64,000 bases of DNA, taken from positions 1 to 64,000 of the forward strand of contig QKFD01000109.1 in NCBI GenBank assembly GCA_003251535.1, given 5' to 3'. The position numbers and the translations under genes were made by a program. Shown here piece after piece: positions 26,048 to 57,700 of the stretch. Each line of letters begins with the position of its first letter. Positions within the stretch are counted from its first letter, which is position 1. Below the pieces are notes generated by a model, which had not been told where the DNA came from, did not search any database, and was given only the letters and a program-made list of their open reading frames with translations. Source of the stretch: Chromatiales bacterium (GTDB lineage: Bacteria > Pseudomonadota > Gammaproteobacteria > Thiohalomonadales > Thiohalomonadaceae).

Positions 26048-26923
26048 CTACGCCGAGCCACGCAGCGGCAGCGCCCGACAGACGCCCCGCTCCGCCACCC
26101 CCCGCTGCCCAAACGGCGGCGACACGTAGCGCTCCTGGACGATCGCCTCCATCCAGCGGCGGACCCGATCCACATCGGGGTCCACCGCCGGGATGAAGGC
26201 CGCGGCCCGATAGACGGCGAGGGCAGCGGGCTCCCGCAACTCCATGAAGGCGCTGCGTAGCGCCTCTCGCAGGGGTGGGGCGAGCCCCGCCCGGAAGGTC
26301 CACATGTACTCCGGAATGGGGGGCGAGAGCGCCAAGATCCGCAGCGCCTCACCGGCGATCCGCCCCTCGCTACAGAGCCGATGGAAGATCGGCAGGGAGA
26401 TGGCACCGGCGGTGAAGCGTCGCGCCGCCACGGCCGCCGCCACCGCATCGTGGGCCCCCAAAAAGCGGCGGCTGTAGTCACGCTCCGCCACCAAGCCCGC
26501 CTCTAGCAGCATGAAACGGGGGACCCAAGAGCCGGAGGTGGAGGCCATGTCCCCCATGGCGATCTCACCGCCACACAGCTGCGGCAGGCTCTGCAATGGG
26601 CTATCGGCGGGGACGATGATGGCCGCCTGAAAGGTGGGGCCGGTAGTACCGCCATGGGAGGGGCGGGCAAACGGCTCCAGCGCGGTGGCGCGGCTTTGCA
26701 GGATATAGGTCACCGGCCCGAGGTAGGCGAGATCCAACTCGCCTTTGCGCAGCGCCTCGCCAGTGGCCACATAGTTGCTACCGATGACCAGCTCCACCGG
26801 CATCGCCAAACGCTGCGCCAAATAGTCGCGCAGCGGGGCGTTGAGGCGCTCGACCACCGGCCGGGACTCCCCCGGCAGGAGTCCACAGCGCAGAGGGGAC
26901 TGGGATTGCTTGATTCGTGCCAC
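26048..26923 (-). CDS. PhnD-family binding protein without a signal peptide
   Basis: A 291-residue protein with the PhnD fold: LRCGLLPGESRPVVERLNAPLRDYL, VELVIGSNYVATGEALRKGELDLAYLGP, then AIIVPADSPLQSL and a SWVPRFMLLEAG helix. The called start is GTG 26923; the frame reaches a stop 22 codons further upstream with no other start and no hydrophobic segment, so no signal peptide is possible without a frameshift. Either the protein is cytoplasmic or the 5' end is lost. No ABC ATPase or permease is adjacent. The ribosome site is weak. Confidence 0.78.
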   Translation of the reverse strand: MARIKQSQSPLRCGLLPGESRPVVERLNAPLRDYLAQRLAMPVELVIGSNYVATGEALRKGELDLAYLGPVTYILQSRATALEPFARPSHGGTTGPTFQAAIIVPADSPLQSLPQLCGGEIAMGDMASTSGSWVPRFMLLEAGLVAERDYSRRFLGAHDAVAAAVAARRFTAGAISLPIFHRLCSEGRIAGEALRILALSPPIPEYMWTFRAGLAPPLREALRSAFMELREPAALAVYRAAAFIPAVDPDVDRVRRWMEAIVQERYVSPPFGQRGVAERGVCRALPLRGSA

Positions 26924-27224: not shown

Positions 27225-27252
27225 TTGGGCAGCAGAGGCGCCATGGTATATA
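27225..27252 (+). promoter_or_regulatory. possible sigma-70 promoter for the TonB receptor
   Basis: TTGGGC (27225-27230) and TATATA (27247-27252) are spaced by 16 bp and end about 40 bp before the GTG start of the receptor gene. The -35 is a partial match only. The rest of 26924-27293 contains no gene; I looked for a known riboswitch and saw none. Confidence 0.35.
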
Positions 27253-27293: not shown

Positions 27294-29408
27294 GTGAAGA
27301 TCCAGCGCCATTCCCCCTTTGCCTTCGCCCTGTTTCTCCTACCCGCCGTGGCCCTGGCCAGCGAAGGGGAGGAGAGCACCGACCTGGGATCGATCCAGGT
27401 CAACCAAGGCGAATCCCCCAGCGGCAGCGCGGCCGCCGGCTACCGCAGCGACAGCGTGCAGCTCGGCCCCTTAGGGAGCGGCAGCCCCCAGGAGATCCCC
27501 TTCACCATTGCCACCGTCCCCGGTGAGCTGATCCGCAATACCCAGGCAAATAACAGCGCCGAGGCGCTGCGCTATCTGCCCACCGTCTACGTCAGTACCG
27601 GCGCCAGCCAGATCACCCCCTACTTCACCCTGCGGGGGATCTCCGCCTCCACCTGGAGTTACAACATGGCGGTGGACCAGATGCGCAGCTTCGATATCTA
27701 TCAACCCCTGGAGGATAAGGAGGGGATAGAGGTACTCAGCGGCGCCGCCGGCTTCCTCTACGGCATCACCTCCCCCGCCGGCATGATCGACTACGTGAGC
27801 AAGGCGCCCAGCCCCACACCGCTACGGGAGTTGACCCTCGGCAGCTACGACCAGCAGCTCCACGCCCACCTCGACCTCGGGGGACCACTCAGCGAGACGG
27901 GTGAGCTGAGCTACCGACTCAATCTGGCCTACGCCGATGCGGGCGACACCGGCGTGGAGCAGCAGGGAGAGGAGCGCTATCTCCTCTCGGGCGCCCTGGC
28001 GTGGCAGATAGATGCTGCCCATCGGTTGCAGTGGGAGGCGAGCCGCTCCCACCGCCAACTGCGGTATGCCCAGTCGCTCTTCATGACCAATAGCAGCATC
28101 GGCATCCCGACGCCCCCCAGCACCGACCACAACTGGGGCGCCCCCTACAGCGGCGCCGACGACACCACCACCCGCCTAGGCGTGGCACTGACGAGCGAGT
28201 TGGCACCCCAGACCGCGCTGCGGGCCCGCTATCGCTATAGCGACATCGAGCGCAGCTATCTCCTCACCCGCCAGGTGTGGCAGAACAGCGACCTAGACTA
28301 CCGCTGGCGGATCGATGCCCAGGAGGCGTTCCACACCTACGTCCACCAGTACCAGCTCTTCCTCGACCACACCCTGGCCAGCGGCCCGCTGCTCCACCGC
28401 CTCACCGTTGGTGTCAGCGGCGACCGCTACGAGGCGGGCAACAACGGCTATCACGGCACCACCTACACCACCCTCTACCCTGGCAACCTCTACAGCAGCC
28501 CCAGCTATCCAGAGTGGAGCGCCCCCCCGGCCGGCACCGCCACCGCGCAACAGACCCAATACAGCACCCTGCTGTTGGCCGATCGCATCGAACTCGGCGA
28601 GCGCTGGTCGCTCCTGCTGGCGGGCACCCAGGCCCGGGTGGATGACACCAGCGTCGCCCTGCGCGACACCTCCCGCTCCGTGACCCACTACGCCGACGAC
28701 GCCTTCACCCCCGCCCTCTCCCTCAGCTTCACCCCTATCCCGGCCATCACCGGCTACCTCTCCTACGCCGAGGCGCTGCAACAGGGGTTCACCGCCGGCG
28801 CCACCGCCAGTAACGCCGGCGAGAGCTTCGCCCCCTTTGTCAGTCGGCAGCAGGAGCTGGGGATCAAGGCGAGCGTGGGCGACATGGCCCTCGCCCTCGC
28901 CTGGTTCCAGCTGACCCAGGCCAACCAGTATGTTGACCCACAGACGCTGCGGGCCTCCCAGGATGGCCGGGTCAGCTATCGCGGCTGGGAGCTATCCGCC
29001 AGCGGCCGGCTCACCCCGCGGCTCAGCATCACCGGCGGCGCCAGCCTGCTGTCGGCCCGCATCGATAGCGCCACCGCCAACATCGGCCGCACCCCACAAG
29101 GGGTAGCCGAGCGGAGCGCCCGCCTCTATGCGGAGTACGACCTACCGGCGGTGACCGGCCTCACCCTCACCGGCGGCCTCTCCTACACCGGCAAGGTGCC
29201 GTGGGATGCCGCCAACAGCCACTACGTCGATGCGGTGACGCTATTTGATGCCGGCCTGCGCTATCGCACCCGTGTAGGCCGCACCGACACCACTTGGCGA
29301 CTAGGGCTCGCCAATGTCACCGGAGAGGAGTACTGGACCACCCGCTCCGGCATCCTCTACCTTGGCGCCCCGCGCACCTTGACCCTCTCGGTCAGCGCGG
29401 CCTTCTGA
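27294..29408 (+). CDS. TonB-dependent outer-membrane receptor
   Basis: A 704-residue receptor: signal peptide (FALFLLPAVALA), a plug domain with a siderophore-receptor-like sequence (ITPYFTLRGISASTWSYNMAVDQM, LEDKEGIEVLSGAAGFLYG, SPAGMIDYVSKAP) and a 22-strand-type barrel ending in the C-terminal Phe (TLTLSVSAAF). It is predicted to import an iron chelate or another large ligand, energised by TonB. GTG 27294 has GAGG 7 nt upstream. It is followed after 1 bp by a periplasmic binding protein gene, so the two form a transport pair lacking its own ABC permease here; the substrate cannot be read from the sequence. Confidence 0.93.
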   Translation: MKIQRHSPFAFALFLLPAVALASEGEESTDLGSIQVNQGESPSGSAAAGYRSDSVQLGPLGSGSPQEIPFTIATVPGELIRNTQANNSAEALRYLPTVYVSTGASQITPYFTLRGISASTWSYNMAVDQMRSFDIYQPLEDKEGIEVLSGAAGFLYGITSPAGMIDYVSKAPSPTPLRELTLGSYDQQLHAHLDLGGPLSETGELSYRLNLAYADAGDTGVEQQGEERYLLSGALAWQIDAAHRLQWEASRSHRQLRYAQSLFMTNSSIGIPTPPSTDHNWGAPYSGADDTTTRLGVALTSELAPQTALRARYRYSDIERSYLLTRQVWQNSDLDYRWRIDAQEAFHTYVHQYQLFLDHTLASGPLLHRLTVGVSGDRYEAGNNGYHGTTYTTLYPGNLYSSPSYPEWSAPPAGTATAQQTQYSTLLLADRIELGERWSLLLAGTQARVDDTSVALRDTSRSVTHYADDAFTPALSLSFTPIPAITGYLSYAEALQQGFTAGATASNAGESFAPFVSRQQELGIKASVGDMALALAWFQLTQANQYVDPQTLRASQDGRVSYRGWELSASGRLTPRLSITGGASLLSARIDSATANIGRTPQGVAERSARLYAEYDLPAVTGLTLTGGLSYTGKVPWDAANSHYVDAVTLFDAGLRYRTRVGRTDTTWRLGLANVTGEEYWTTRSGILYLGAPRTLTLSVSAAF

Positions 29409-29409
29409 G

Positions 29410-30435
29410 ATGCAACGCCGCCACTTCGCGCTGCTGGCGCTCCAGCTCCTGCTCGGTCCTCCCCGCCCCCTACAGGCGGCCGCCCCAGCGCTACGCCTCG
29501 TCGATCAAGCGGGCGCACGGCTCCAGCTGGCCAGACCAGCAGAGCGGATCGCCACGCCGGGGATCTCACTAGCGGCGCTGATCCTCGCCCTGGGCGGCGA
29601 ACAGCGGCTCGGCGCGGTGGCGGCGGAGGTGCGCAACAACCCCTGGCTGCGCCACATCTTTCCAAGGCTGGCACACCTGCCCATCGCCTTTCGCCGCCCC
29701 CTCGGCCTCGACGCCGAGCAGCTCCTGCTCCACCGCCCCGACCTAGTAACCCTCTGGCTCGGCAGCGATCTCCTAGCACAACGCCTAAGGTCACTGGCCC
29801 TCCCGGTGCTCACCCTGGGCTACACCACCCCCGAGGGGCTGATGACGGCCGCCCGCCTCTTGGGCCAGGCCCTGGGGGTGGCGGCGCGGGCCGAGCGCTT
29901 CATCCACTACTACCGCAATAATCTGCAACGGGTCGCCACCGCCCTTGCCGGCCTAGCACCCAGCGAGCGGCCAAGGATCTACTACGCCTCCATCACCCCG
30001 CTCCACACGGAGGGTGCCGACTCCATGGTGGACGCCTGGATCCGCGCCGCCGGCGGCGTCAATCTCGCGGCCCAGCACGGCCTGCACGGTGACGGCAGCA
30101 TCGCCCTAGAGAGGCTGCTCGCCTGGGATCCAGAGATCATCATCACCCTCGGCGAGCGCCAACGGCAGGCCATCCTGACGGACCCCCGCTGGCGCCCCAT
30201 CAGCGCCGTGCGCACTCGTCGGGTCATCACCAACCCCAAGGGGATCAACGCCTGGTGTACCCGTGCGGCAGAGGCGGCACTCCAGGTGGTGTGGGCCGCC
30301 AAGACCTTCCACCCACAGCGTCTCCCTGAGATAGAGCTGCCAGAGGAGACGCGCACGTTCTATCGCCAGTTTTATGGCTACGCCCTCAGCGACGCGGAGG
30401 TGGTGCGGGTGTTAAGCGGACTGCCACCCGGCTGA
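29410..30435 (+). CDS. periplasmic metal-chelate binding protein (FecB/BtuF type)
   Basis: A 341-residue protein of the helical-backbone binding-protein class: LRLVDQAGARLQLARPAERI opening, LGLDAEQLLLHRPDLVTLW, an oxyanion/chelate-binding lobe and WDPEIIITLGER near residue 240. The N-terminus MQRRHFALLALQLLL carries a twin-arginine pattern before a hydrophobic stretch, so Tat export is possible. It starts 1 bp after the TonB receptor stop, implying translational coupling. It would deliver substrate from the outer-membrane receptor to an FecCD-type permease; the only such permease in the window is at the far right edge. Confidence 0.9.
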   Translation: MQRRHFALLALQLLLGPPRPLQAAAPALRLVDQAGARLQLARPAERIATPGISLAALILALGGEQRLGAVAAEVRNNPWLRHIFPRLAHLPIAFRRPLGLDAEQLLLHRPDLVTLWLGSDLLAQRLRSLALPVLTLGYTTPEGLMTAARLLGQALGVAARAERFIHYYRNNLQRVATALAGLAPSERPRIYYASITPLHTEGADSMVDAWIRAAGGVNLAAQHGLHGDGSIALERLLAWDPEIIITLGERQRQAILTDPRWRPISAVRTRRVITNPKGINAWCTRAAEAALQVVWAAKTFHPQRLPEIELPEETRTFYRQFYGYALSDAEVVRVLSGLPPG

Positions 30436-49020: not shown

Positions 49021-49056
49021 CCCCGCTAACTGTTCCCACAGGAACAGTTAGCGGGG
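49021..49056. promoter_or_regulatory. NifA-type upstream activating sequence in a perfect palindrome
   Basis: CCCCGCTAACTGTTCC (49021-49036) and its exact complement (49041-49056) enclose CACA. Inside the palindrome TGT (49031-49033) and ACA (49044-49046) are exactly 10 nt apart, matching the NifA upstream activating sequence TGT-N10-ACA. It lies about 100 bp upstream of the start site predicted from the sigma-54 promoter at 49112-49126, in the usual range for NifA sites. A NifA-family gene is in the window. Binding is inferred. Confidence 0.7.
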
Positions 49057-49111: not shown

Positions 49112-49126
49112 TGGCCCACTGCTTGC
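49112..49126 (+). promoter_or_regulatory. sigma-54 (-24/-12) promoter of the five-gene operon
   Basis: TGGC at 49112-49115 and TTGC at 49123-49126 give the invariant GG-N10-GC spacing of sigma-54 promoters (consensus TGGCAC-N5-TTGC). Transcription would start near 49137, 37 nt before the ATG at 49174. Sigma-54 promoters need an AAA+ activator bound upstream; the palindrome at 49021-49056 provides a NifA-type site. Confidence 0.7.
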
Positions 49127-49173: not shown

Positions 49174-50241
49174 ATGACCGACCCCCGTATCCATCTCAGC
49201 GCCGTGAGCCAACTCAGCCCAGCGCAGGCGCCGCCCCCGGCCGATCTCGGCCGACTCGATCTGCTGGGCCGAATGCCGATCCCTCTGCGGCGGCCATTCA
49301 AGGTAGGACTCGATCGGGTGGTGGAGCAGCAGCGGGCAACCCAGGGCCAAGAGCTGGCGTGCTGTTTTCTCAGCGGTGGTGAGTGGTATCGACCATTTGA
49401 CGGGCTGCTGCGCGCCGACCGTTGCCGTGAGTTGCCCGGGATGGTGGTGACCCCGTTCTACCACGACATCCTCGCCCCCTCGCTACTGCGCCACTACACC
49501 CCTGAGAGGCGGCGGCCCACGCCGCCGCTCCCCATGGCGTGTGCCGCTGCGGGGTTGATCGATCCGTTGGGGGCGTTTCAGACCTTTGCGGTGATCCCGT
49601 TCCTCTTCTTGGTGGATGAGAGCCGGCTAGGGGGCCGACCGGCGCCACGGACCTGGGCCGATCTACTGGAGCCACAGTGGGCCGACGATATCGTCTTTGG
49701 CGGCTGGCGCCCCAACGAACAGGTGCCCTACCAGGACTACAACGACTTCCTGCTGCTGTCGCTGTACCACGAGTTTGGCGCGGCGGGGCTCGCCGCCTTC
49801 GCCCGGAATGTCCGCCATCTGCAACACAACATCCGCACCGCCACCCAGGCCGGATCCAACAGCCGCAGTGTCGGCGCCATCGCCGTACTGCCGTGGCTCC
49901 AGGCCGAGCTGGCGCCCCGTCGCCACCGGCTGCGGGTGGTCTGGCCGGCGGATGGTGCCCTCGCCATGCCCATCGGCTATCTGCTCCAGCCGGCGGCGGA
50001 GGAGCGCCTGGCCCCCCTGGTCGATTACCTCACCGGCAGCGCCCTGGGCGGCATCCTCGCCCGTAACTGCTACCCGCCCATCAACCCCGCGGTGAGCGGT
50101 GCCTTCCCCAGCGGGGTCCGTCTCAAATGGCCCGGTTGGGAGTACGCCCGCAGCCACGACCTCAAGGCGGAGGGGGCCCGCGCCGCGCAGATATTTTTCC
50201 GCCACTGGTATGGCGAACAGGAGGCTCGGGTATGCAGCTGA
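49174..50241 (+). CDS. solute-binding-protein-like protein lacking a signal peptide
   Basis: A 355-residue protein resembling type-2 binding proteins of the iron/spermidine class: FQTFAVIPFLFLVDESRLGG, TWADLLEPQWADDIVFGGW, YNDFLLLSLYHEFGAAGL, and a C-terminal LAMPIGYLLQP then NPAVSGAFPSGVRL. The chosen ATG 49174 has AGGAG 9 nt upstream; neither it nor an upstream extension to 49123 supplies a hydrophobic leader, so the protein is predicted to stay in the cytoplasm. First gene of a five-gene operon with no permease. It may bind a metal or anionic ligand for the neighbouring NTPase. The family is inferred by pattern and needs a structure search. Confidence 0.75.
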   Translation: MTDPRIHLSAVSQLSPAQAPPPADLGRLDLLGRMPIPLRRPFKVGLDRVVEQQRATQGQELACCFLSGGEWYRPFDGLLRADRCRELPGMVVTPFYHDILAPSLLRHYTPERRRPTPPLPMACAAAGLIDPLGAFQTFAVIPFLFLVDESRLGGRPAPRTWADLLEPQWADDIVFGGWRPNEQVPYQDYNDFLLLSLYHEFGAAGLAAFARNVRHLQHNIRTATQAGSNSRSVGAIAVLPWLQAELAPRRHRLRVVWPADGALAMPIGYLLQPAAEERLAPLVDYLTGSALGGILARNCYPPINPAVSGAFPSGVRLKWPGWEYARSHDLKAEGARAAQIFFRHWYGEQEARVCS

Positions 50242-50942
50242 TCACGGTTGCCGGTTCGCCCTCGGTGGGCAAGACCTCCGTCATCCTGCGTAGCTGCGAA
50301 CAGCTAATGCGATCAGGACTCCGAGTGGGGATTGCCAAGTTCGACTCCCTCTCCACCAGTGATGACCAGCTCTACCGCCAACGGGGGATCCCTGTGGTCA
50401 CCGGACTGGCGGGCTCGCTCTGTCCCGATCACTACTTCGTCTCTAACGTCGAGGAGTGCCTGGCCTGGGGGCGCCGTCAGGGGTTGGATCTCTTGATCAG
50501 CGAGAGCGCCGGCCTGTGCAACCGCTGCTCACCCCACATCGAAGGGGTCCTGGCGGTCTGTGTGGTGGATGCCCTTGCCGGGGTCCATACGCCCAAAAAG
50601 ATCGGCCCGATGCTGCGGTTGGCCGATCTGGTGGTCATCACCAAAGGCGATATCGTCTCCCAGGTGGAGCGGGAGGTGTTTGCCTACCACGTGCGGCTGG
50701 CCAATCCGGCGGCGCGGGCGCTGTTCTGTAACGGCATCACCGGCCAGGGGGCACTGGAGCTGGCGGCGACCCTACGGGCGGCACCGGCCACGCCGCAGCT
50801 GGAGGGGGTACGGCTCCGCTTTCCCATGCCCGCCGCGGTCTGCCCTTACTGCGTGGGCGAGACCGCCATTGGTGAGACCCACCAGCGGGGCAATGTGAAG
50901 AAGATGCGCTTTGCCGATCTGGCGACGGCGGAGGCGCCATGA
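50232..50942 (+). CDS. HypB/UreG-like P-loop NTPase with two CxxC motifs
   Basis: A 236-residue cytoplasmic NTPase of the SIMIBI class. Walker A is GSPSVGKT (residues 8-15), followed by KFDSLSTSDDQ and a TKGD base-specificity motif at 137-140 (in place of NKxD). CNRC (96-99) and CPYC (204-207) are candidate metal or Fe-S ligands. HypB, UreG and CooC relatives deliver or insert Ni and other metals using GTP or ATP, so a metallochaperone role is likely; the metal is unknown. It overlaps the first gene by 10 bp and the ABC ATPase gene by 4 bp (ATGA). Confidence 0.82.
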   Translation: MQLITVAGSPSVGKTSVILRSCEQLMRSGLRVGIAKFDSLSTSDDQLYRQRGIPVVTGLAGSLCPDHYFVSNVEECLAWGRRQGLDLLISESAGLCNRCSPHIEGVLAVCVVDALAGVHTPKKIGPMLRLADLVVITKGDIVSQVEREVFAYHVRLANPAARALFCNGITGQGALELAATLRAAPATPQLEGVRLRFPMPAAVCPYCVGETAIGETHQRGNVKKMRFADLATAEAP

Positions 50943-51949
50943 GCCGCTTCGCTACCACCCCTATCCAGCAGCTGCTGCATAGCTACCCCTGTGTGGAGGA
51001 GTTCATCGCGGCCATCGGTCTGGCCACCCCGAGCGACGGCCGCCCGTTGCAGGAGTGGCTGACCCGCCTCTCGGATGAGGAGCTACTGGACGCCGGCATG
51101 GAGCGGGGCCAGATCCTCAACCATGTCGAGCGCCTCATCGCCGAAGTGGAGGCGATGGCGGATGGCGCCGCGGAGAAGGTGACCCACATCACTCTACTGG
51201 GCGGCCACGACAAGAGTGGTCGGCCGGAGGCGCTGGAGTTGACACTGCGGGCCGGTGAAGTGGTCTGCGTGGTCGGCCCCACCGGCTCCGGTAAGAGCCG
51301 GCTGCTGGCCGATATCGAGTGCCTGGCCCAAGGTGATACACCAACCGGCCGCCGGGTCCTCATCAATGGCGAGGTACCCAGTGATGAGCGCCGCTACGGC
51401 CTGGATCGCAAATTGGTGGCACAGCTATCGCAGAACATGAACTTTGTCGTGGATCTCTCGGTGCGGGAGTTCATCACCATGCACGCCCACTGCCGTCAGG
51501 TGGGAGATGCCGAGACCACGGCGGAGCAGGTGATCGCCTACGCCAACCGCCTCACCGGAGAGCAGTTCTCCCCCGAGGTCTCCGTCACCCAGCTCTCCGG
51601 CGGCCAGACCCGCGCCCTGATGATCGCCGACGCCGCCCTGCTCTCGGCCTCGCCGGTGGTACTCATCGATGAGATCGAGAACGCCGGGGTGGATCGCAAG
51701 CGGGCACTAGAGCTACTGGTGGGGGGCGAAAAGGTGGTGATCATCTCCACCCACGACCCCCTACTGGCACTGCGGGGTGATCGACGCATCGTGATCCGCA
51801 ACGGCGGGATCGCCGCCGTGCTGGAGACCAGCGCCGCCGAGCGATACAACTTGGCGCAGTTGGAGGCGGTGGATGCCGCGGTGATGACCATCCGCGATCA
51901 ACTACGGCGGGGCCTGCGCATCGAGGAGGCGATCCGGTGGCCCACGTAA
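50939..51949 (+). CDS. ABC ATPase with an N-terminal DUF1858-like domain, no permease
   Basis: A 336-residue protein. Residues 1-75 form a small helical domain (PIQQLLHSYPCVEEFIAAIGL) of DUF1858/ScdA-like appearance. The rest is a complete ABC ATPase: Walker A GPTGSGKS (113-120), signature LSGGQ (219-223), Walker B VVLIDE (240-245) and His switch STHDP. There is no transmembrane segment and no permease gene in the operon, which is unusual. It may drive a soluble machine or pair with a distant permease. ATGA overlap with the NTPase gene; 13-bp overlap with the nitroreductase. Confidence 0.85.
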   Translation: MSRFATTPIQQLLHSYPCVEEFIAAIGLATPSDGRPLQEWLTRLSDEELLDAGMERGQILNHVERLIAEVEAMADGAAEKVTHITLLGGHDKSGRPEALELTLRAGEVVCVVGPTGSGKSRLLADIECLAQGDTPTGRRVLINGEVPSDERRYGLDRKLVAQLSQNMNFVVDLSVREFITMHAHCRQVGDAETTAEQVIAYANRLTGEQFSPEVSVTQLSGGQTRALMIADAALLSASPVVLIDEIENAGVDRKRALELLVGGEKVVIISTHDPLLALRGDRRIVIRNGGIAAVLETSAAERYNLAQLEAVDAAVMTIRDQLRRGLRIEEAIRWPT

Positions 51950-52503
51950 ACCAAGAGGCGTTGGCACTGCTACTCGGGCGCCGCTCTCACCACCGCCTGG
52001 GGCCACCCGCGCCGGATGATCAGCAGTTGCGGCAGATCTTCGCCGCCGCCCTGCGCGTACCTGACTTCGGCCACCTGCGCCCCTACCGCTTTCTGGTGGC
52101 GCGCGGCAGTGGTCTGGATCGACTGGGCGCGGCGATGCAGCGGGCGGCCATCGCCGCCGGCAAGGGCGAGGAGGTGATCGCCCGGGCAGCGCGGATGCCC
52201 CTACGGGCGCCGCTGGTGATCGTGGCGGTGGCGAGCCCCAAGGCCGATGCGGTGGTACCGCAGTTTGACCAACAGCTCTGCGCCGGCGCCACCGTACTGA
52301 CGATGCAGCTGGCAGCGCGGGCGCTAGGTTATAGCGGGATCTGGCGCTCGGGCTGGCTGATGTATGACCCAGGCTTTCAGCGAGAGCTGGGGCTGGCAGC
52401 GGAGGAGTCACTGGTGGGTCTGCTCTATCTGGGGACCCCTGACGAAAGCGATCAGGCGGCACCACCCACCGTGGACCCAAGCCCCCTCCTGACCTGGCTC
52501 TGA
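51937..52503 (+). CDS. nitroreductase-family FMN protein (YdjA-like)
   Basis: A 188-residue flavoprotein-like reductase: RRSHHRLGPPAPDDQQLRQIF, VPDFGHLRPYRFLV (FMN contact region), MPLRAPLVIVAVASPK, ATVLTMQLAARALGYSGIWRSGW. Short nitroreductases of this type are often dimeric and act on quinones, tetrapyrrole-like cofactors or small sulfur compounds; the substrate is open. GTG 51937 overlaps the ATPase stop and has GAGGAGG 7 nt upstream. Its place between the ATPase and the glutamate-cysteine ligase-like enzyme suggests a redox step in the same pathway. Confidence 0.88.
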   Translation: MAHVNQEALALLLGRRSHHRLGPPAPDDQQLRQIFAAALRVPDFGHLRPYRFLVARGSGLDRLGAAMQRAAIAAGKGEEVIARAARMPLRAPLVIVAVASPKADAVVPQFDQQLCAGATVLTMQLAARALGYSGIWRSGWLMYDPGFQRELGLAAEESLVGLLYLGTPDESDQAAPPTVDPSPLLTWL

Positions 52504-52515
52504 GCGAGGTTGACC

Positions 52516-53703
52516 ATGCACTGTGGGATCGAGTTTGAGTACCTGCTGATCGACCGCACCGGCCCGACCGCCGGACGGATCCGCGACTTTAGTAATCTCC
52601 CCTTCACCACTATCCAGCCCCTCCTGGAGCGGCGCCCGGGGCGCGGCGATCCGGGGCTCGCCAGTGGCGATCTCGGGATCCGCAGCGGCTACTGGTATCT
52701 CGAAGGGGACGAACGCTTCCTACCCGATGGCCGCTTCCATACCCTGGCGGTGAAGGGGGTGGAGATCCGTACCCCGCCGGCCGAAGACGTGGCCCAAGCG
52801 GTGGCCCGGCTGCTGGCCATAGAGCAGCAGCTAAGCGACCAGCTCGCCCCCCACGGCCTGGGGTTGGGGATTGTCGGCTTCAATCCACTGCGCGCCATCT
52901 ACCCCTTTGATCCCCCCTTGAACCCCTGGCAGCAGGCACTGCGGCAGGCCGATCGCGGCTACGATGGCAGCCACATCTCGACCCTCAGCTATGGGCCGGA
53001 TATCAATCTCTCCCTGCCCGGTTGGACGGCGACCCACGCCCTGGCGGCGGCCCGCCGCCTCAACCGATACGCCCCCTACATCGTGCCCTTCAGCTTCCAC
53101 AGCCCCTTTGCCGCCGGTGCCCTCTGGCCCGGCTACTCCCGCCGCAGCTATGAGCGGCCACGCTATCGGCCAGCGGTCAAACTCTATCTAGGGGCGGCGG
53201 AGCTGACGACGTGGGGCCCCCGCTCACAGCTGCTCTACCCCGCCCGGCTACCACGGGAGGAGGGGCGCATCGAGTTCAAGGCGTTTGATGCCCTCCCCTC
53301 CCCCCGTCTGCTGACCGCCCTCTGTCACCTGCTGGAGGGGATCTGTCTGGCCGACGAGCTAGCCGCCGCGGATGAGGCGTGCGATCTGCCGCTCTACCGA
53401 CGCGCCGCCCTCACCGGCTTCGATGACCCGCATATCCACACAGGCGCCCGCGAGGTGCTGGCCTGCGCCAAGGGGGCGCTGCTGCGCCAGGGCGCCACCA
53501 CCGCCGTGCGCGCCCTGGCCCCGCTGGAGCAGCTACTGGCGGAACGCCGCACACCGGCCCACAGCCTGCGCGAGCAGTATTGTGCCGGTGGCGCGATGTA
53601 TCACGAGGGAGGCTTGGTGGCCGCCTATGAGCAGGAGCTGACCACCACGCGGCTACCACCCAGCAGTAGCACACCGACTAGCCCCCTCCCCGCTCCGCCG
53701 TAA
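52516..53703 (+). CDS. glutamate-cysteine ligase-like enzyme (GCS2 type)
   Basis: A 395-residue protein of the type-2 glutamate-cysteine ligase superfamily: CGIEFEYLLID at the N-terminus (metal-binding Glu pair), VKGVEIRTPP, SHISTLSYGPDINLSLPGW (ligand loop), VPFSFHSPFAAG and GRIEFKAFDALPS. These enzymes join Glu to Cys or to a related amine using ATP; the exact substrate cannot be read from the sequence. ATG 52516 follows GCGAGG by 6 nt; it starts 12 bp after the nitroreductase stop. Last gene of the operon. It may make a thiol ligand for metal handling; that is inference. Confidence 0.82.
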   Translation: MHCGIEFEYLLIDRTGPTAGRIRDFSNLPFTTIQPLLERRPGRGDPGLASGDLGIRSGYWYLEGDERFLPDGRFHTLAVKGVEIRTPPAEDVAQAVARLLAIEQQLSDQLAPHGLGLGIVGFNPLRAIYPFDPPLNPWQQALRQADRGYDGSHISTLSYGPDINLSLPGWTATHALAAARRLNRYAPYIVPFSFHSPFAAGALWPGYSRRSYERPRYRPAVKLYLGAAELTTWGPRSQLLYPARLPREEGRIEFKAFDALPSPRLLTALCHLLEGICLADELAAADEACDLPLYRRAALTGFDDPHIHTGAREVLACAKGALLRQGATTAVRALAPLEQLLAERRTPAHSLREQYCAGGAMYHEGGLVAAYEQELTTTRLPPSSSTPTSPLPAPP

Positions 53704-57088: not shown

Positions 57089-57700
57089 CTACGAGGGTCT
57101 ATTGGTGGGGGCAAATTGGATGGGCTCGGCCTTATCTTCAGAGCCAAAGCACTCTAGGTAGTCGGCACACTCACCGCAAGTGGGTGATTGGCAGATGAGC
57201 ACCTCAGCCTGTTCACAGAGCTGACGATAGAAGAACTTCTTCCACTTCATGTCGCCCACATTTTTGGCGTGGAGCGCCGGGAAGTTGTCTAGTAGCACGC
57301 GATTGAGTACGCCGCGATTGGGTAGTCCCATATCCTGCCAGAGGTGGTTACCGGCCATGCTGGCGGTAGCCACCGCCAGTGCCAACCACTCCACGGCCTC
57401 GTCGTCGGAGCCGCGGTGCGCCAATAGCAGTTGCAGCAGGTCGTCAAACTCCCCTTCGCGGTCAGACAGGAGGGGCTCGGCCGGCGTCGCCGCCACTAAC
57501 CCGGCCGCCTCTAGGGCAGGGAAAAAACGCTCGGCAAGCTGCGCCATGGTCGCACGCGAGAGGCCGGCGATGGGGATATCGTAGGGCGCGCTACGCAGAG
57601 GGGCGTTGCCGATCACACCGGCGAGGGCCAGCACCAATGGTGAGTCGGGCACAGCAGCGCCGGCGAGCAGTTCCGGATAGGTCGGCAACGCCATAGACAT
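57089..57700 (-). CDS. nifQ: NifQ, molybdenum donor for FeMo-cofactor assembly
   Basis: A 203-residue protein. The C-terminal cysteine signature CQSPTCGECADYLEC matches the C-X4-C-X2-C-X5-C motif of NifQ, which binds a Mo-Fe-S cluster and supplies Mo to NifEN/NifH during FeMo-co synthesis. The conserved WQDMGLPNRGVLNRVLLDNFP and MKWKKFFYRQLCEQAEVLIC also fit the family. Its ATG overlaps the mop stop (TAATG), so the two are translationally coupled. Strong evidence that the organism fixes nitrogen with a Mo nitrogenase. Confidence 0.95.
   Translation of the reverse strand: MSMALPTYPELLAGAAVPDSPLVLALAGVIGNAPLRSAPYDIPIAGLSRATMAQLAERFFPALEAAGLVAATPAEPLLSDREGEFDDLLQLLLAHRGSDDEAVEWLALAVATASMAGNHLWQDMGLPNRGVLNRVLLDNFPALHAKNVGDMKWKKFFYRQLCEQAEVLICQSPTCGECADYLECFGSEDKAEPIQFAPTNRPS

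What the first reader, a model, noticed from the sequence alone, without database searches (positions are those of the whole stretch)
49174..53703. Five-gene operon: cytosolic binding protein, SIMIBI NTPase, permease-less ABC ATPase, nitroreductase and glutamate-cysteine ligase-like enzyme
The genes overlap or nearly touch (10 bp overlap, ATGA overlap, 13 bp overlap, 12 bp gap), so they form a single unit. A solute-binding-type protein without a signal peptide and an ABC ATPase without a permease make a classical importer unlikely. The NTPase has two CxxC motifs, and the end enzyme could make a thiol ligand. Together they look like a cytosolic metal or thiol trafficking pathway, tied to nitrogen fixation by its promoter. 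I know of no described system with this set. The function is inference.
Basis: partly seen in the sequence, partly recalled or inferred. Interest (0 to 1): 0.85.

Follow-up and report, generated by a model that had tools for sequence, protein, structure and literature searches.

The report
Vanadium-nitrogenase helper operon, function unproven
These five genes are a helper operon of bacteria that have a vanadium-using nitrogenase, most likely there to prepare vanadium inside the cell; a matching operon is already known to be switched on with the vanadium nitrogenase in Azotobacter, but nobody has shown what it does.

Summary
The same genome carries vnfDGK. Genomes with close relatives of this operon have VnfG in 25 of 26 cases; among 368 other genomes of the class, none has VnfG/AnfG. 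The NTPase falls in a well-supported clade spanning Pseudomonadota, Myxococcota and one Bacillota, nearly all VnfG-positive. Upstream lie a sigma54 site and a VnfA-type palindrome; that palindrome type precedes 17 of 27 clade operons and 0 of 49 outside it. The set is not undescribed: Azotobacter vinelandii Avin_02430-02390 has the same five genes and is VnfA1-dependent (PMC9542535), function unknown. New here: (1) in alphaproteobacteria an ATP-grasp ligase takes the place of the glutamate-cysteine ligase-like enzyme (10 versus 14 genomes, never both); (2) the NTPase keeps the Cys/His metal site of HypB/UreG; (3) the first three genes form a conserved cytosolic trio reaching far beyond vanadium, also into genomes without nitrogenase, with a fast-diverging binding protein. 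Best reading: cytosolic vanadium handling for the FeV-cofactor. The biochemistry is inference.

The parts
49021..49056 (.). perfect inverted repeat (16-bp arms, CACA loop) that contains the VnfA-type site
   Evidence: sequence
49032..49045 (+). VnfA-type enhancer site GTTC-CCACAG-GAAC (published motif GT(T/A)C-N6-GTAC, allowing the T/A choice in both halves)
   Evidence: motif from PMC9542535
49112..49126 (+). sigma54 -24/-12 promoter TGGCCCACTGCTTGC, 62 bp before the first start codon
49174..50241 (+). cytosolic type-2 substrate-binding-like protein (SBP_bac_6); fold closest to ferric-binding FutA/FbpA; no signal peptide
50232..50942 (+). G3E-type NTPase related to HypB/UreG, with conserved C64-P-D-H67, C96xxC99, C110, C204xxC207
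50939..51949 (+). permease-less ABC ATPase (Walker A, LSGGQ, Walker B LIDEIENAG) with an N-terminal extension of about 85 residues
51937..52503 (+). nitroreductase-family flavoprotein (nearest model PRK10828, just under its cut-off)
52516..53703 (+). GCS2/YbdK-fold carboxylate-amine ligase (glutamate-cysteine ligase-like); replaced by an ATP-grasp ligase in alphaproteobacterial relatives

Best explanation
The operon is an accessory unit of the vanadium nitrogenase, switched on by a VnfA-type activator with sigma54, that most likely prepares and passes on vanadium inside the cell for FeV-cofactor assembly. Shown here or in the literature: same genome as vnfDGK, VnfA-type promoter, orthologues tied to vnf across three phyla, VnfA1-dependent counterpart in A. 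vinelandii. Inferred: after import (probably by the PhnCDE-like VodABC), the signal-less binding protein takes up vanadium or a vanadium complex in the cytosol; the flavin reductase reduces it or its ligand; the amide ligase (GCS2-type, or ATP-grasp in alphaproteobacteria) makes a small ligand; the soluble ABC ATPase drives loading or release of the binding protein; and the Cys/His-bearing NTPase hands the metal towards VnfEN/VnfX in a nucleotide-gated step, as HypB and UreG do with nickel.
For: Own genome encodes VnfD/G/K above curated cut-offs. VnfG in 25 of 26 genomes with close orthologues (24 over the curated cut-off), AnfG/VnfG in 0 of 368 others of the class; NTPase orthologue in own plus one remote 39% homologue of 369 (Fisher p 1e-38 before any correction for shared ancestry). 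Clade with 100/97 support, 27 of 28 VnfG-positive. VnfA-type sites 17 of 27 against 0 of 49 outside the clade; null mean 1.7, maximum 7 in 500 draws. A. vinelandii counterpart has a VnfA1 ChIP peak and VnfA1-dependent expression. NTPase keeps the HypB/UreG Cys-His metal positions. In the binding protein R249 and R250 are invariant in the vanadium clade but not outside it. Two unrelated ATP-dependent ligase types exclude each other.
Against: No biochemical or mutant evidence that any of these proteins touches vanadium. The three-gene core also occurs in genomes without vnf and without any nitrogenase match, so its basic function is not vanadium-specific. Nostoc plasmids carry vnfDG while no Nostoc plasmid matched with the NTPase (their chromosomes were not tested), so the operon may not be required for every V-nitrogenase. 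The ligase exclusion follows the alpha versus beta/gamma split and could be shared ancestry. R249/R250 were not mapped onto a pocket. No functional study was found in the paper library.
Confidence: 0.6

Rival explanations
1. The operon processes a metallophore: the reductase and ligase release vanadium or iron from imported catecholate complexes, or build or modify such a ligand, and the trio handles the complex.
For: FecCD/FepB/TonB-type uptake genes are frequent neighbours of the trio; VnfA1 also controls TonB receptors in A. vinelandii; a TonB receptor and a Peripla_BP_2 protein lie in this window.
Against: No siderophore-synthesis genes in the operon; uptake genes are absent next to many clade members; does not explain the HypB/UreG-type NTPase.
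Confidence: 0.15
2. The unit senses vanadium, as the signal-less VodA paralogue VnfZ is thought to do, and adjusts nitrogenase choice rather than delivering metal.
For: VnfZ is a precedent for a cytosolic binding protein in this regulon; the trio lacks a permease.
Against: No DNA-binding or activator gene belongs to the unit; two enzymes and two NTPases are more than a sensor needs; the trio is kept in genomes without vnf.
Confidence: 0.1
3. The trio handles iron (or another metal) needed for nitrogenase cluster building, and the vanadium link is indirect.
For: Closest folds of the binding protein are ferric-binding FutA/FbpA; iron-type uptake genes and, in Fusobacterium, genes I read as a ZnuABC-like importer lie nearby.
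Against: The Tyr-Tyr pair typical of FbpA iron sites is absent in the window protein and the whole vanadium clade; the orthologue clade follows vnf, not nif in general.
Confidence: 0.12
4. It is a classical ABC importer whose permease and signal peptide were missed.
For: Binding protein plus ABC ATPase.
Against: No signal peptide in 75 orthologues, no permease in the unit, tight overlap with an NTPase, same order across phyla.
Confidence: 0.03

Closest known systems
Avin_02430-02390 operon of Azotobacter vinelandii (VnfA1 regulon; PMC9542535)
   Same: Same five protein types in the same order; sigma54/VnfA-type promoter; in a vnf genome. The A. chroococcum copy (L033) has an NTPase 80% identical.
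HypB and UreG (G3E metallochaperone GTPases)
   Same: P-loop fold, G3 glutamate, Cys/His metal positions.
   Different: Scores far below the HypB and UreG cut-offs (37.9 vs 121.2; 22.8 vs 204.2 bits); TKGD instead of NKxD; additional C96xxC99, C110 and C204xxC207.
VodABC / VnfZ (predicted vanadate importer and its cytosolic paralogue)
   Same: Same regulon and metal in A. vinelandii; VnfZ is also a signal-less binding protein.
   Different: PhnD-type family, not SBP_bac_6; VnfZ pairs with VnfA3, not with an NTPase and ABC ATPase.
FutA/FbpA ferric-binding proteins
   Same: Same class of fold (Foldseek best hits).
   Different: About 14% identity, no signal peptide, no Tyr-Tyr iron motif.
YbdK / plant glutamate-cysteine ligase
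   Same: Carboxylate-amine ligase fold, GxEFE motif near the N-terminus.
   Different: 17% identity or less; below the YbdK-family and EgtA cut-offs; substrate unknown.
NifQ (molybdenum donor for FeMo-co)
   Same: Conceptual counterpart: heterometal supply for the cofactor.
   Different: Unrelated protein; most tested vanadium-clade genomes have both.

Membership tests
VnfA-regulated V-nitrogenase accessory operon (Avin_02430-02390 type) | five genes SBP, GTPase, ABC ATPase, nitroreductase, glutamate-cysteine ligase in this order | tested here: met
   published order
VnfA-regulated V-nitrogenase accessory operon (Avin_02430-02390 type) | V-nitrogenase genes in the same genome | tested here: met
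   VnfD 984.7, VnfG 166.3, VnfK 887.1 bits, all over cut-off
VnfA-regulated V-nitrogenase accessory operon (Avin_02430-02390 type) | sigma54 promoter with VnfA-type site | tested here: met
   49112 and 49032, 80 bp apart; enriched across the clade
VnfA-regulated V-nitrogenase accessory operon (Avin_02430-02390 type) | actual VnfA dependence of expression | not testable with these tools
   shown only in A. vinelandii
G3E metallochaperone NTPase | G1 P-loop and G3 glutamate | tested here: met
   GSPSVGKT and E91-S-A-G conserved; PF02492 over cut-off
G3E metallochaperone NTPase | NKxD guanine motif | tested here: inconclusive
   TKGD conserved in at least 95% of 81 sequences
G3E metallochaperone NTPase | Cys/His metal site | tested here: met
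   C64/H67 and C96/C99 lie at or next to the HypB/UreG positions (alignments) and are conserved; metal binding itself not tested
HypB or UreG equivalog | curated score cut-off | tested here: not met
classical ABC importer | signal peptide on the binding protein | tested here: not met
classical ABC importer | permease in the unit | tested here: not met
ferric-binding protein FbpA/FutA | Tyr-Tyr iron ligands | tested here: not met
   no YY in window or vanadium-clade SBPs
GCS2 carboxylate-amine ligase | family profile and fold | tested here: met
   PF04107 24.6 vs 21 bits; Foldseek YbdK/GCL
glutamate-cysteine ligase (substrate) | joins glutamate and cysteine | not testable with these tools
   below the EgtA and YbdK-family cut-offs

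The most novel reading that the evidence does not exclude
The SBP-NTPase-ABC trio is a so far unnamed, general cytosolic metal-loading machine of anaerobes and diazotrophs: conserved NTPase and ATPase engines, an exchangeable binding protein that sets the metal (vanadium in this clade, probably molybdenum or others elsewhere), and optional ligand-making enzymes, here a reductase plus one of two unrelated amide ligases.
Probability: 0.35. Interest if true: 0.85.

Novelty: new member of a known kind. Interest (0 to 1): 0.55.

Why it matters
To my knowledge, how vanadium reaches the FeV-cofactor inside the cell is not worked out, and no vanadium counterpart of NifQ has been named. The A. vinelandii counterpart is a tested regulon member, and the evolutionary evidence here makes this operon a leading candidate, with clear genes to delete. 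If the trio is a general metal-loading machine, its reach over many phyla, including non-diazotrophs, would make it relevant well beyond nitrogen fixation.

Tried and rejected
NifA control: the TGT-N10-ACA at 49031 first looked like a NifA site, but the clade-wide pattern fits VnfA half-sites GT(T/A)C-N6-G(T/A)AC; the only other TGTTCC-N4-GGAACA in the genome lies inside a gene of a cluster I read as CRISPR-associated, so it is chance. My first sigma54 pattern had the wrong spacing and was useless, corrected. Iron-binding protein: fold fits, ligands do not. PDB sequence searches with the SBP and the ligase gave nothing useful. The N-terminal part of the ABC ATPase resembles the DUF1858 domain seen on distant SBPs only weakly (hhalign probability 48%): left open. 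Trio as a stand-in for NifQ: 12 of 13 nitrogenase-bearing genomes with the trio outside the proteobacterial/myxococcal vanadium set (R. hungatei counted here) lack NifQ, but this follows taxonomy and the vanadium set mostly has both, so it was not used.

Full report
OBSERVATION. The five genes are present as described, on the + strand, with overlaps of 10, 4 and 13 bp and one 12-bp gap. Pfam assigns SBP_bac_6, CobW/HypB/UreG, ABC_tran, Nitroreductase and GCS2. No NCBIfam model reaches its cut-off for any of them.

CONSERVATION. A genome scan with the NTPase returned 80 loci, 59-84% identical. In nearly all of them binding protein, NTPase and ABC ATPase stand together; the nitroreductase is limited to a subset (within L021-L047), and the ligase to beta/gammaproteobacteria and one myxococcal genome. 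At the same loci the binding protein falls to 20-30% identity in distant phyla while the NTPase stays near 60% and the ATPase near 50%: the binding protein behaves like an exchangeable specificity part (inference).

VANADIUM LINK. The window's genome has vnfD, vnfG and vnfK over curated cut-offs, followed by a NifX-like gene and a PhnCDE-like transporter, and what I read as nifDK on another contig. VnfG was found in 25 of the 26 genomes holding close orthologues (24 over the curated cut-off, the myxococcal one below it); the exception is an incomplete 1.7-Mb assembly. Among 368 other genomes of the class none had AnfG/VnfG and one had a remote 39% NTPase homologue. A maximum-likelihood tree gives a clade of 28 NTPases, support 100/97, of which 27 come from VnfG genomes, spanning Pseudomonadota, Myxococcota and Ruminiclostridium hungatei, whose VnfG-type match is below the curated cut-off. 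Shared ancestry makes the nominal p-values too strong; the presence of three phyla in the clade is the better argument.

PROMOTER. Upstream of the first gene lie a sigma54 site at 49112 and GTTC-N6-GAAC at 49032, 80 bp apart. The published VnfA1 motif is GT(T/A)C-N6-GTAC (PMC9542535). With the T/A choice allowed in both halves, the motif precedes 17 of 27 clade operons, several with two copies about 30 bp apart, against 0 of 49 orthologues outside the clade and a null mean of 1.7. The own-genome nifH-type gene at the end of contig C10 has GTACCGCTAGGTAC 98 bp before a sigma54 site. No such motif was found in the stretch of contig C85 that holds vnfDGK.

PRIOR ART. PMC9542535 describes Avin_02430-02390 with the same five products, a VnfA1 ChIP-seq peak and VnfA1-dependent expression, and says that all but the last gene are conserved in representatives of the V-nitrogenase Proteobacteria. 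No later study of its function was found in the library. The window operon is therefore a new member of a described kind.

WHAT IS ADDED. (a) A D-Ala-D-Ala-ligase-like ATP-grasp enzyme is found in 10 genomes, all alphaproteobacterial, near the operon at eight of the loci examined, and the GCS2-like enzyme in 14 others (one cut by a contig end); no genome has both, three have neither. Two unrelated ATP-dependent carboxylate-amine ligases in the same slot suggest that a small amide ligand is made (inference). (b) The NTPase has a conserved C64-P-D-H67 and C96xxC99 at or next to the positions of the HypB/UreG metal ligands, plus C110 and C204xxC207. (c) Seventy-five binding-protein orthologues lack a signal peptide. 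The predicted model (pLDDT 91.8) is closest to ferric-binding FutA/FbpA but lacks their Tyr-Tyr pair; R249 and R250 are invariant in the vanadium clade and not outside it. (d) The GCS2-like model (pLDDT 83) is closest to YbdK and plant glutamate-cysteine ligase. (e) The trio occurs in genomes without a nitrogenase match and in Fusobacterium vincentii beside genes that I read as a metal-ion importer; elsewhere it often lies near ModAB, FecCD and nif genes.

MECHANISM. Shown: gene content, promoter type, co-occurrence. Inferred: cytosolic capture of vanadium by the binding protein, reduction by the flavoprotein, ligand synthesis by the ligase, ATPase-driven loading or release, and nucleotide-gated hand-over by the NTPase to VnfEN/VnfX. 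Confidence 0.6 that vanadium handling is the role in this clade.

Noticed in passing
window 57089-57700 (-): A NifQ gene (169 bits over 57143-57574, C-x4-C-x2-C-x5-C motif) lies 3.4 kb past the operon; the genome has a second NifQ on contig C2.
   Followed up: partly
window 26048-26923 (-): A PhnD-type binding protein without signal peptide, 64% identical to the genome's own VodA-like protein: VnfZ-like, but with no activator gene beside it.
   Followed up: partly
window 27294-30435 (+): TonB-dependent receptor and Peripla_BP_2 protein with a sigma54-like site TGGTATATAGGTTGC at 27244, possibly another member of the vanadium regulon.
   Followed up: partly
L110:2376-5032: PhnCDE-like transporter after vnfDGK and a NifX-like gene in the own genome, corresponding to the predicted vanadate importer VodABC.
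   Followed up: partly
L035:338-1612, also L038, L039, L040, L043, L047: Fusion of DUF2478 with DUF4213/DUF364 ('putative heavy-metal chelation') near alphaproteobacterial operons (domains read only in L035); DUF364 also stands beside the trio in Clostridium ljungdahlii, L059.
   Followed up: no
L059, L074: Clostridial loci carry two or more copies of the cytosolic binding protein per cluster, in line with an exchangeable specificity part.
   Followed up: no
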